Shown in pieces: positions 30,863-52,610 of a DNA stretch of 64,000 nucleotides. Below the pieces are notes generated by a model. The model made no database searches, was not told the DNA's origin, and saw nothing but the letters and a program-made list of their open reading frames with translations. The position numbers and the translations under genes were made by a program. Source of the DNA: Fragilaria crotonensis. Its lineage: Eukaryota; Bacillariophyta; Fragilariophyceae; Fragilariales; Fragilariaceae. Location of the stretch: positions 116,161 through 180,160 of the forward strand of contig JAKSYS010000038.1 in NCBI GenBank assembly GCA_022925895.1. The letters are read 5' to 3'. Positions within the stretch are counted from its first letter, which is position 1; every line of letters begins with the position of its first letter.

Positions 30863-32127
30863 GGTCGTCTTGTTGGTGTCGAACTTGCACTTTAATTGTG
30901 TCTATCGTGGCTTGCTGTTGAAATTCTTGTCTTCTTGGGTCAGTGAAAATAGGAGTCTTGCGTCTGTTGGAGTCACGAAGGCATCTCCTGGCTTCTATGT
31001 GTGTATGTCATACAACGAAGGACGGAGAATACTCTTTCCTGCTGTGCACAACAGTGTTGTTCAGAGTTTTACATGTTTGTACAGTACTAGTACCAAGTGC
31101 TCGTACCGGTGCTATTGTTTTATCTCTATTATTCCGACTCTATCATATGACTGGGGAGTTGGGAGTAGTGAGTAGTGAGTAGTAGTAGGAGTATGCTGTA
31201 TCGCTGTATGTGATATGCTGTATCTCAGTACTAACCCTTCCACGTACTACCTTCGGTGATACAGTACTCCAGTAAGACAGTAACATAGGGAGCGTGCATG
31301 CTGATTGGTACTGCTGATAGGTACGGCTTAACGTCATTTCCTTGCATTCTAAATTAATAGGAGGTGGCTTGACCGGACCTTCCGATGGCTGCATGGCCGT
31401 CTTTTCTATTGTGGCCTCGACGCTACTGTCACTATTCTGTTCAACGAGTACAGTAGCAAACTTCTGGTATGCAGCATACAGCATACAGCACATACCCCAA
31501 AGTATGGGCATATCTGAGTACTTGTAGTACGGAGTATGATACCAGTACTCCAGTACCAGGTAACATAACTGATAATCTGATCATCCTTGTATGACATGCG
31601 AACTGCGAACCACGGTACTTGTACCAGGTACAAGGTACAAGTACTGGAGTCCCACACAGTAACGTATACTGTACGCCCCTCCATACACATCCATATAACA
31701 CAATACTCCATACGCTTGGCGATACTGGTACTATGTATGACATATACTTCGAGTCTACTGGTAACTGGCACTCTATGATACTACTTAGTAGCATCAAGGT
31801 ACTCGTAGCTCGTAGCTATTATAGTGTATTAATATGCCGAAGGAATACAACTTGTATGCATAGTACAGTACCGGGGACAGGAAAAAGTACCAGGTATCAT
31901 ACATCATACTACGTATCCAACAGCGAAACCATAGGCCAAAAATCAACAACCTCGCTGTGTCTCACGTGTCACACGAAAACACGATCATATCTCACTCGTT
32001 TATCGACATCGAACTTCTTGTTTCCTCTTCATCGGGCATAACTCCGAGTACGTACCTTGTGCTTCCGGCTTCCGGCGACAGCACTTCAATTCATGTTATA
32101 GCTATTCAGCAAATCAAGGCCACTGGT
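30863..32127. other. Intergenic region packed with GTAC-type palindromes
   Basis: A divergent interval of more than 1 kb. From 31060 to 31900 it carries repeated short palindromic units: GTACTTGTACC opposite GGTACAAGTAC at about 31614-31645, CCAGTACTCCAGTACCAGG near 31541, CAGTACTAGTACC near 31082 and many others. The open frames here are composed of these motifs and are not genes. The reading frame of the MTHFR-like protein is open without ATG from about 31957, so a 5' exon may lie in the last 170 bp. Confidence 0.5.
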
Positions 32128-40492: not shown

Positions 40493-41010
40493 GGAAGGTC
40501 CGGCAATACACGCTTAGTCGTGAATCAAGGTCGAATTCACGCTGGCCGGAGGCGAAAATCATTTCCGTTCTGTGTCTGGCTGGTGCTAAACTGGTTATGC
40601 CAGCGTCATCGTCGTTTTGCTGACACTTGCTGACGAAAAGACAGATCTGCTGACATACGCTGACAAAAAACCAATCTGCTGACGTCTGCTGACGAAATTC
40701 GAATCTGCTGACATTTTCTGACATATGATGACGAAAACGAGTTTTTTCCAGTACAAAAGCTACGGTGATGCTGACATCTTCTGACGTTTGCTGACGAGAA
40801 TCAAGTTTGCTGACATTTGCTGACGAAAAGCAAATCTGCTGACATTTGCTGACGAAAAAGAAATCTGCTGACATTTGCTGAACCTTGCCAGCTCGAATGA
40901 TACGACAAAGATCCTAACAAGCTCTCATCACGCCGGCCGGTCATTGGCTGGCGCGCACATTCTTAAGGTACATCTTGTTAATCGCGAAACGTGCTTGGGC
41001 CGGACCTTCC
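40493..41010. mobile_element. Short inverted-repeat element A (518 bp), putative non-autonomous DNA transposon
   Basis: Starts GGAAGGTCCGGC (40493-40504) and ends with the exact reverse complement GCCGGACCTTCC (40999-41010). The same 12-bp tips bound the larger element at 50592-51938. It has no coding capacity. Its middle is an array of paired GCTGAC motifs. No target-site duplication could be identified at the ends, so a precise boundary a few bases outward, or loss of the duplication by later rearrangement, is possible. Classed as a MITE-like element by inference. Confidence 0.65.
40619..40882. repeat. Array of paired GCTGAC motifs inside element A
   Basis: GCTGAC (sometimes TCTGAC) occurs in pairs 10 bp apart, at 40619/40629, 40649/40659, 40678/40688, 40707/40717, 40780/40790, 40809/40819, 40838/40848 and 40867/40877. 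Pair-to-pair spacing is 29-30 bp, with one degenerate stretch around 40730-40770. Typical spacers are ATTT within a pair and GAAAAGCAAATCT between pairs. The 10- and 29-bp spacing suggests protein sites on one face of the helix. The minus-strand open frame through this array is a by-product of the repeat. Confidence 0.85.
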
Positions 41011-50372: not shown

Positions 50373-50745
50373 CTCACAACTTGTGGCTCACAAATTGTGA
50401 TCCACAACTCACAGCACATAAAGCGTTGGTCTGCAGATGAGATTGTACTCCTGTAGAACATGAGTTGATGCAATTTGCCTTCTCCTAACAACAAGAGGAA
50501 TGAACAAGGTACTGTCATTGTCTGCCTATATGCAAGAACATCAGCATATCATACATATATCATCAAGTATCATGCGTTAATAAATACTCCAGGAAGGTCC
50601 GGCCCAAGCACGTTTCAGCCGTTAAGTTTGTGACCGTCGTCAGATATGCGTCAGAGATTTTCCAAAATATGTATTGCGAGATTTGTAGCTCGATTGGTCG
50701 ATGCAAACGAGCCGGCAAGGTTTTCTCCTCGTAAGTAAAAAATTG

Positions 50746-50840
50746 CTGACCGTCAGTAAAAAATTGCTGACCGACAGTAAATATTTACTGACCGTCAGCA
50801 AAAAATTGCTGACCGTCAGTAAATAATTGCTGACCGTCAG
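50746..50840. repeat. Left iteron array of element B, 5 x 21 bp
   Basis: CTGACCGTCAG begins at 50746, 50767 (variant CCGACAG), 50788, 50809 and 50830, exactly 21 bp apart. The 10-bp AT-rich spacers are of the form TAAAAAATTG. The motif is palindromic apart from its central base pair, so each copy is a dyad site, and 21 bp is two helical turns. Confidence 0.95.
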
Positions 50841-51671
50841 GAGGTTCCGGAATTTCTGCTTTTATCCTAGTATTTATTCTACAGGACTTTTTGTGTATCA
50901 GATTGATCGAATTGGTTTCATGATGTTGGTATTCGTAGGTACTCAAGTACAATGGACAATTATCATTTTCTGATTTGACGGATTTTATTATAAAAGAAGA
51001 AAGTCCGCAGATTTCTTTCTCCTAATTTCTTTCTTCTACTTAAGCAAATTGAAGCTTCTTCAATTTTCTTCTAGTTTCTCCCTTTTTCTCCTTTTTTCTA
51101 AACAGCTTCTCCTATTTTCTCCCTTTTGCTTCCTTTCGCTTACTACGTTGCAAGTCGTAGAATTTTAGTTTCGTTGATACGAACTCGAACATATAAAACG
51201 TGTCGTACATAAAATTCACCTTAGTGCTGCGAGGTATACACTGCTTTAAAAGCCTATTTTGGACCATGCCACACACGTTTCCAAATGAGCGAGTAGAGCT
51301 TCTCTCTTTTTCTTCCTTTTTCTCCTTTTTTCTTCACGGAATATTTTCTTTCTTCCTTTCTCTTCTTTTTTCTTCCAGATTTTTTCCTTTCTTCCTTTTG
51401 CTTGCTTTTTCTTCCGGGGTTTCTATGAATGTATATAGAACTTGCATATGAATCGATGGACTTGTTTTGCTCATCACGTTTTCAATTTCGGTTGATGTCC
51501 AAGGTTATCACGTCATGGCACGCAGAAAAAAAGAAACGGTTTTGAAAAAAGTCCTTAAACATGAAAGAAAAACTAGTCCGAAAGCAAATATTCCGGGACC
51601 TCCAGTAAATCTGATTTGTCTTTAAGAAGCTTTCGTGGACACATGGTATGTTCTTACGTCAGTAATTTCTT

Positions 51672-51787
51672 CTGACCGTCAGCAGTTTCTTTCTGACCGT
51701 CAGCAATTTTTTACTGACCGTCAGCAAATTTTTACTGACCGTAAGTAAATTTTTACTGACCGTCAGCAACTTTTCACTGACCGTCAG
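51672..51787. repeat. Right iteron array of element B, 6 x 21 bp
   Basis: CTGACCGTCAG begins at 51672, 51693, 51714, 51735 (variant CCGTAAG), 51756 and 51777, again exactly 21 bp apart with AT-rich spacers such as CAAATTTTTA. It mirrors the left array in motif, spacing and distance from the element tip. Confidence 0.95.
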
Positions 51788-51938
51788 TAATTTTGCACTT
51801 TGCACCATTCACATGATAATAGCGCCAGCCTATGCTTCACGTTGCGTCACCAAGACTCAGAATGGAAGCGATTTTCACCTCCAGGGTATCACGTGTTTTC
51901 GTCTTCTTCACGATTCCCTAGGTATGGCCGGACCTTCC

Positions 51939-52610
51939 AACACAAACAAAAACTCACTATGCATACCGGTAGCTGGGTAGAGTAGGGTAGGACGCTTCTA
52001 ATACGAGTATGTCATAGCTAATGGATACGCCTACTCTAGAGTAGTAGTAGTTGGAGTGTAGGAGACGATAAACTGTTGAGACTTCAGACTTCAGACGCCC
52101 ATTTGAACGGCGACTCCATAGTACAGTTGTGGTACATAGTATACGTACGATACTATGTACGAGGAAGAAATCACAATAGCACAATAGCCCTCCCCTACAT
52201 GAGTATCGGTAATTTGTGAACTGGAGTTGGAACAGCTGAGATATGACATACATAGTAGATCACTATACTATATATATATATATTCGACGCGCTTTACACC
52301 TGACACCAGACAAAATACAAAATAACAGTACTTGTAGCTGGTACCAAGAGAAGTTGTCTCCCGCCAATTTTTTGGAAAGGGAAGCGAGGAACAGGATACA
52401 CAGGATACAGGATCATCGAATGATGCATGTAATTCTTGATTTCCCATCAAACCTTGTTTCCAGACGAGTGCCATTTAGCAAACGAGGAGCGAAAGCAATC
52501 ACGTGGGCCATCTATACCCGAAGATCGGATAGGTTCATTGGGTCAGGAGACTCTGCTCGAATCCCAATCTCAGTGACGCGTTGCTTGATTCATCGAGAGT
52601 GGATTGTCCC
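51939..52610. other. Intergenic region upstream of the kinesin gene
   Basis: About 670 bp. It contains CATACCGGTAGCTGG at 51961, an AT repeat (ACTATATATATATATATTCG near 52264) and GTAC motifs. An open plus-strand frame at 52243-52683 overlaps the first kinesin exon in another frame and shows no family resemblance. Confidence 0.4.

What the first reader, a model, noticed from the sequence alone, without database searches (positions are those of the whole stretch)
50592..51938. Putative new DNA transposon family with symmetrical 21-bp iteron arrays
Seen directly: 12-bp inverted tips (GGAAGGTCCGGC) enclose 1347 bp, with CTGACCGTCAG palindromes at exact 21-bp spacing, five copies on the left (50746-50840) and six on the right (51672-51787). 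The arrays sit 154 and 151 bp from the tips. Symmetry in position, motif and phase implies functional protein-binding ends, either transposase sites or replication-type iterons. I recognise no described eukaryotic family with this plan. That it is a transposon is inference.
Basis: partly seen in the sequence, partly recalled or inferred. Interest (0 to 1): 0.8.

Follow-up and report, generated by a model that had tools for sequence, protein, structure and literature searches.

The report
Iteron-bearing miniature transposon with nested insert
The stretch is a short, apparently gene-less jumping DNA element carrying two blocks of a repeated, probably protein-binding motif, split by a second jumping element that landed between the blocks; it belongs to a repeated family that seems to borrow another element's enzymes.

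Summary
In detail: 13-bp inverted tips (GGAAGGTCCGGCC) and 5+6 CTGACCGTCAG units at 21-bp steps. But the 1347 bp are not one element: they are a 582-bp non-autonomous element (MITE) with a 762-bp second element inserted in the last left iteron. All 9 sister copies examined carry the uninterrupted site; the insertion duplicated CAG. In 14 of 16 complete elements the outer flanks are a matching CWG. Of 67 tip pairs whose ends were picked for CWG, 65 agree in the middle base. Three subfamilies share tips, one end, a two-array plan and a half-site, TGCTGAC or TGCTTAC, arranged as palindromes in one and mainly as direct repeats in the others. CWG duplication with GG tips is closest to NuwaI of the PIF/Harbinger (PHIS) superfamily, but no transposase-bearing copy was found, so membership is unproven. 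Best reading: a MITE moved in trans by a PHIS-type transposase, its arrays being binding sites for that enzyme or its Myb-like partner. Family, CWG target and nesting are shown; the mover and what binds the arrays are inferred.

The parts
50592..51938 (+). outer MITE, subfamily 1 (582 bp without the nested insert), 13-bp inverted tips
   Evidence: left 149 bp: 29 other places at 86-98% identity over (nearly) the full stretch, one partial at 92%, nine at 75-77% (40 scored of 88 candidates, the window itself included)
50592..50604 (+). left tip GGAAGGTCCGGCC
51926..51938 (-). right tip GGAAGGTCCGGCC (reverse complement)
50590..50592 (.). left flank CAG of the target duplication; the right flank 51938-51940 reads CAA, so this copy's duplication is imperfect
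50746..50840 (+). left iteron array, 5 units of CTGACCGTCAG at 21 bp (4 exact)
51672..51787 (+). right iteron array, 6 units at 21 bp (5 exact)
50841..51602 (.). nested 762-bp element (GAGGTTCCGGAA...TTCCGGGACCTC), no frame of 200 aa, with pyrimidine-rich degenerate repeats at 51016-51415
   Evidence: 17 further copies of 750-803 bp in L002-L016, L019, L020
50838..50840 (.). left copy of the CAG duplication made by the nested insertion, inside the last left iteron
51603..51605 (.). right copy of the CAG duplication made by the nested insertion
40493..41010 (+). second MITE in the window, subfamily 2 (518 bp), same tips, flanked by CTG on both sides
40618..40881 (+). two arrays of TGCTGAC, 13 exact sites all in one direction, mainly in 29-bp units

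Best explanation
The window holds a non-autonomous cut-and-paste transposon (MITE). Its 13-bp inverted tips mark where a transposase encoded elsewhere cuts; it inserts at CWG and duplicates those three bases. The two internal arrays are most likely multiple binding sites (half-site TTGCTGAC, here paired head to head into a 17-bp palindrome, repeated every 21 bp, about two helical turns) for the transposase or, as in Harbinger3_DR, for its Myb-like partner protein, which brings the transposase to the ends. A second MITE of another CWG family later landed in the CAG of the last left iteron and pushed the arrays apart. Shown: element boundaries, copy families, CWG duplication, nested insertion with its empty site, shared half-site and plan. 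Inferred: that a PHIS-type (PIF/Harbinger-related) transposase moves it and that the arrays are its or its partner's binding sites.
For: Window copy against 9 sister copies: 9 of 9 read GACCGTCAGTAAATCTG or a close variant without the insert, and the step between the arrays is 77 bp in 9 of 9 against 842 in the window. Flanks: 14 of 16 distinct complete elements (17 rows, the window copy listed twice) carry the same CWG on both sides, with no CWG required beforehand. Tip pairs: 65 of 67 pairs agree in the W; both patterns already demanded CWG, so only that agreement was tested (45 of 67 pairs are 517-520 or 591-599 bp long; rows left out are told under Tried and rejected). For the nested family's tips, 31 of 33 pairs within 3 kb agree, counted by eye in the first 100 of 279 places, again with CWG demanded. 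Half-site TGCTGAC or TGCTTAC: 6 to 15 per element in all 16, about 0.1-0.5 expected from shuffles within 30-base blocks. Arrays at similar distances from the ends in subfamilies 1, 2 and 3 (5 elements). The genome is rich in PHIS transposases: 150 matches to DDE_Tnp_4 and 152 to Plant_tran, lower bounds and partly the same places. CWG duplication with GG tips is described for NuwaI (PMC4482050, parts 1 and 2 of 4 read). The Harbinger3_DR Myb-like protein binds a 9-bp subterminal motif (PMC9710019, passage); another paper's passage says it binds the inverted repeats (PMC2836001).
Against: No copy with these tips and a transposase gene was found; the coding elements whose ends were read by eye look TWA- or TNA-flanked, not CWG. 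No binding experiment exists. The arrays begin about 125-160 bp inside the tips. The outer copy's own duplication is imperfect (CAG/CAA) and L024 has none; pairs at C131 and C184 and at C86 and C194 disagree. Iteron columns vary less (15 of 924 letters) than the outer flanks (34 of 1144, 38 of 1103) but hardly less than the stretch between the arrays (9 of 528), so special constraint on the iterons is not shown (8 copies).
Confidence: 0.62

Rival explanations
1. It is a MITE as described, but the arrays are binding sites for a host regulator, or mere amplified minisatellites inside the element, and play no part in transposition.
For: Unit number varies between copies (left array 5 units in most, 4 in L030, 2 in L024). 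Internal tandem repeats occur in other transposons (the foldback element Tetris, search listing only). Iteron columns are hardly better kept than the stretch between the arrays.
Against: Three subfamilies with different array sequences keep the same half-site and the same two-array layout, which is more than one amplification event explains.
Confidence: 0.25
2. The mobilising enzyme belongs to another superfamily that makes 3-bp duplications (for example Zator), not to PHIS.
For: No transposase gene was found between these tips. Zator is stated to make 3-bp duplications (PMC10045372, passage).
Against: CWG plus GG tips match a described PHIS group, and the genome holds many PHIS transposases. 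The search with PF07592 found nothing in this genome, but it rang in none of the 14 control genomes either, so it does not count.
Confidence: 0.15
3. The 1347 bp are one transposon with symmetrical terminal arrays, as first read.
For: Tips and arrays are real.
Against: The middle 762 bp is a separate element with its own tips and its own CAG duplication; 17 other copies were delimited, and at these places the match to the window element covers essentially the middle only.
Confidence: 0.01
4. The arrays are replication-type iterons of a plasmid-like or viral replicon.
For: Spacing of about two helical turns and palindromic units.
Against: Dispersed copies on many contigs with target duplications; no frame of 200 aa inside the window element; no exact match to the double iteron or the shared end among viral contigs.
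Confidence: 0.02

Closest known systems
NuwaI transposons (PHIS superfamily; PMC4482050)
   Same: 3-bp CWG target duplication; short inverted tips starting with GG; tip length (13 bp) within the reported 12-61 bp.
   Different: NuwaI tips usually start GGG and were reported from 16 animal genomes; most autonomous NuwaI candidates code for a DDE transposase and a Myb/SANT protein.
Tourist-like MITEs and canonical PIF/Harbinger (for example mPing/Ping; PMC2836001, passages)
   Same: Short gene-less elements with short inverted tips and a 3-bp duplication, expected to be moved by a transposase plus a Myb-like partner.
   Different: Duplication is CWG, not TWA; long arrays of a repeated half-site.
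Harbinger3_DR (zebrafish; PMC9710019, passage)
   Same: A short subterminal motif is bound by the Myb-like protein.
   Different: Here 8 to 15 exact half-sites in two arrays, in the five elements mapped, starting about 125-160 bp inside the tips, as palindromes or direct repeats.
CACTA and Ac/Ds-type elements with subterminal repeats (recalled, no call)
   Same: Clusters of short transposase-binding repeats inside the tips.
   Different: Different tips and duplications.

Membership tests
MITE (non-autonomous class II element) | short, gene-less, inverted tips, many dispersed copies of uniform size | tested here: met
   582-bp unit; 8 of 9 sister copies 520-587 bp, the ninth (L028) 1916 bp; related pairs at 517-520 and 591-599 bp (45 of 67); no frame of 200 aa inside the window element, shorter frames not searched
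MITE (non-autonomous class II element) | target-site duplication | tested here: met
   14 of 16 distinct elements with the same CWG on both sides; empty site for the nested relative in 9 of 9 sister copies
NuwaI | CWG target duplication | tested here: met
NuwaI | tips usually starting GGG | tested here: not met
   tips read GGAAGG, or GAAGG if the duplication is CWG; the paper says 'usually'
NuwaI | DDE transposase plus Myb/SANT protein of the NuwaI clade in the autonomous copy | tested here: inconclusive
canonical PIF/Harbinger | TWA target duplication | tested here: not met
   CWG instead
Zator | Zator/ISAzo13-type transposase in the genome | tested here: inconclusive
   PF07592 rang neither here nor in any of 14 control genomes

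The most novel reading that the evidence does not exclude
One DNA-binding protein of a PHIS-type transposition system reads a 7-9 base half-site (TTTGCTGAC or TTTGCTTAC). Several MITE families in this genome have multiplied that site into two 5- to 8-fold arrays, in different geometries (head-to-head palindromes, direct repeats), to capture the shared machinery. The same word (ATGCTTACG) stands inside the terminal repeats of coding TNA-type elements of the genome, which would link the MITE arrays to that transposase clade. Each iteron of subfamily 1 also contains a CWG target at each end, so the arrays double as landing sites for related elements.
Probability: 0.3. Interest if true: 0.6.

Novelty: new variant of a known kind. 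Interest (0 to 1): 0.42.

Why it matters
How MITEs outcompete the elements whose enzymes they borrow is an open question. Families that share tips but carry different geometries of one amplified half-site are a natural experiment: binding and transposition can be compared for palindromic, direct and absent arrays. The case would also extend CWG-duplicating PHIS-like elements to a genome that is probably not an animal's, and it warns that symmetrical 'transposon ends' in a single copy can be widened by a nested insertion.

Tried and rejected
Coding partner: (1) L065 (C228), a DDE_Tnp_4 gene between GGAAGG tips, was read as a 4.1-kb TAA-duplicating element nested in a subfamily-3 MITE. (2) C5:83850-94112, a pair of GGAGGTTCCGG tips with matching CAG enclosing a Plant_tran gene, was set aside: about 40 bp inside the right end stands GGGCATGCTC|TAA, which resembles the starts (TAA|GAGCATG, TAA|GAGCAAG) of other Plant_tran elements (L078, L080); this is by eye, and its left mate was not found. 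(3) L066 (C142), 4.5 kb with 27-bp tips, has no stop-free frame over 114 aa. (4) L059, L060: MITEs beside separate TNA-type elements. (5) Right ends without a scored left end (C60, C78, C118, C811): C78 and C811 have a partner tip within 0.5 kb, and no transposase frame was recognised by eye in the four (no Pfam search was made). (6) About 1 kb upstream of 20 further DDE_Tnp_4 places showed no GGAAGG tip on the gene strand. Collection scans: 0 matches to the shared end and 0 to the double iteron in viral contigs, 0 to the shared end in genome contigs. Rfam (gathering thresholds) and tRNA scans of the window: nothing. Literature: searches showed, in the rows listed, no description of these tips or arrays; subscription papers and Repbase were not searched.

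Read as: PMC4482050 parts 1-2 of 4; passages of PMC2836001, PMC9710019, PMC10045372, PMC12730594; finds in PMC12595863 (only an author's initials) and PMC9179366 (no occurrence); everything else from search listings only.

Rows left out: one search used 72 of the 100 listed shared-end rows (118 in the genome) and 98 of the 100 listed other-end rows (135 in the genome). Left out were 11 rows of known subfamily-1 copies, whose other end is of another type, 17 rows beyond C526, and 2 other-end rows (C535, C549). One subfamily-1 row (C13) was left in. 5 of the 72 stayed unpaired (C13, C130, C184:75792, C229, C256). The script took the nearest partner within 10 kb; the three longest pairs (C37, C228, C270) need not be single elements. 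One search skipped L036 (same element as L035) and pairs over 2.5 kb.

Full report
What is there. The tips are 13 bp (GGAAGGTCCGGCC). Of eleven iterons nine are exact CTGACCGTCAG and two differ at one base; the mean for the exact word in 100 shuffled windows is 0.02.

The 1347 bp are two elements. A search of the window's own genome (62.1 Mb, 881 contigs, unnamed) returned the ends and the middle as separate repeats (40 of 136 candidates scored). In each of 9 sister copies the step between the two arrays is 77 bp, against 842 bp in the window. The difference, 765 bp, is a 762-bp insert (50841-51602) plus a 3-bp duplication, CAG (50838-50840 and 51603-51605). All 9 carry the uninterrupted site, some with a point change. 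The insert has its own tips (GAGGTTCCGGAA...TTCCGGGACCTC); 17 further copies of 750-803 bp were delimited in L002-L016, L019 and L020. It landed in the CAG that ends the last left iteron.

Family. The left 149 bp of the outer element match 40 scored places of 88 candidates: the window itself, 29 others over (nearly) the full stretch at 86-98%, one over 98 bp at 92%, and nine at 75-77%. The right 149 bp match 37 places. The 13-bp tip occurs 319 times, its reversed control once. In 14 of 16 distinct complete elements found in the loci the flanking bases are the same CWG; the exceptions are the window's outer copy (CAG/CAA) and L024. For elements with one shared end and one GGCA-type end, 65 of 67 tip pairs agree in the W (P = 3e-17 against one half; the patterns demanded CWG beforehand), and 45 of 67 are 517-520 or 591-599 bp long. 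For the tips of the nested family, 31 of 33 pairs within 3 kb agree (counted by eye in the first 100 of 279 rows, CWG again demanded).

Plan and half-site. Subfamily 1 (window 50592), subfamily 2 (window 40493, L037) and subfamily 3 (L005, L016, L060) share the tips, one end (GGAAGGTCCGGCCCAnGCACGTT, 118 exact places behind CWG) and a layout of two arrays with a gap between (five elements mapped). The array sequences differ, but all are built from TGCTGAC or TGCTTAC: head to head around one base in subfamily 1 (TTGCTGAC-C-GTCAGCAA), in one direction in subfamily 2, and in one direction except a single site in subfamily 3. Over 106 iteron units from 10 copies, the flanking positions YAA on the right and TT on the left are also largely kept. 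In 8 aligned subfamily-1 copies, 15 of 924 iteron letters are in the minority, against 34 of 1144 and 38 of 1103 in the outer flanks, 19 of 674 in spacers and 9 of 528 between the arrays. So the iterons are hardly better kept than the stretch between the arrays, and this test does not prove constraint. Of 29 CWG triplets in one 584-bp copy (L025), 21 lie in the 211 bp of arrays, which may by itself explain why a CWG element landed there.

Who moves it. The genome is full of PIF/Harbinger-related transposases: 150 matches to DDE_Tnp_4 and 152 to Plant_tran, both lower bounds and partly the same places. The coding elements whose ends were read by eye look TWA- or TNA-flanked, not CWG. Seven of 43 transposase loci (115 kb), including L053 and L059 which are the same place, have TNA|GG..TGCTKA; among 46 other loci (183 kb) there is one match, in L062. 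That pattern was written after the ends had been seen, and the seven share ancestry, so it is a lead, not an independent test. Two apparent coding copies between such tips were set aside as nestings or neighbours of other elements.

Comparison. CWG duplications define NuwaI, a PHIS group reported from animals, with GG-starting tips and usually a transposase plus a Myb/SANT protein (PMC4482050). The duplication fits, the third tip base does not, and the coding part is untested, so I say it behaves like a NuwaI-type MITE, not that it is NuwaI. That a Myb-like partner binds a 9-bp subterminal motif is reported for Harbinger3_DR (PMC9710019, passage; PMC2836001, passage, says the inverted repeats). 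This is the precedent for reading the arrays as binding sites.

Host. Not named. The window's genes include a kinesin and a Dna2-type helicase, a Rad4-like protein, an OBG GTPase and a DUF1350 protein and others. DUF1350 is, from memory, mainly of photosynthetic organisms, so an alga is my guess.

Noticed in passing
window 40493-41010: A second MITE with the same exact tips, flanked by CTG on both sides, with 13 exact TGCTGAC sites in one direction in two arrays.
   Followed up: yes
L065 2357-6501 (G000:C228): A 4.1-kb DDE_Tnp_4 element with a 439-aa and a 662-aa frame, TAA duplication and TTTGTACTTT-like repeats near its ends, nested in a subfamily-3 MITE.
   Followed up: partly
L039, L056, L059, L060, L072: Other PIF/Harbinger-like coding elements of this genome carry their own repeated, often palindromic motifs just inside the ends (for example ACAAACGGGACAGTCCCGTTTGT, CTTGCTGCAAG, CAGCCGCA); seen by eye.
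   Followed up: partly
L016 91-1280 (G000:C712): Two subfamily-3 MITEs in tandem separated by a single shared CAG, as if one inserted into the other's target duplication.
   Followed up: no
L059 102-183 and G000:C184:75627-75806: A very short (82 bp) tip pair with an imperfect second tip, and three tips in a row at 83-84 bp steps.
   Followed up: no
L066 (G000:C142:93842-98390): A 4.5-kb CWG-flanked element with 27-bp perfect tips, AATTAAGAAG repeats at both ends and no stop-free frame over 114 aa.
   Followed up: partly
window 31372-31383: A lone tip with one mismatch (GGAAGGTCCGGT on the minus strand) without a partner seen nearby.
   Followed up: no
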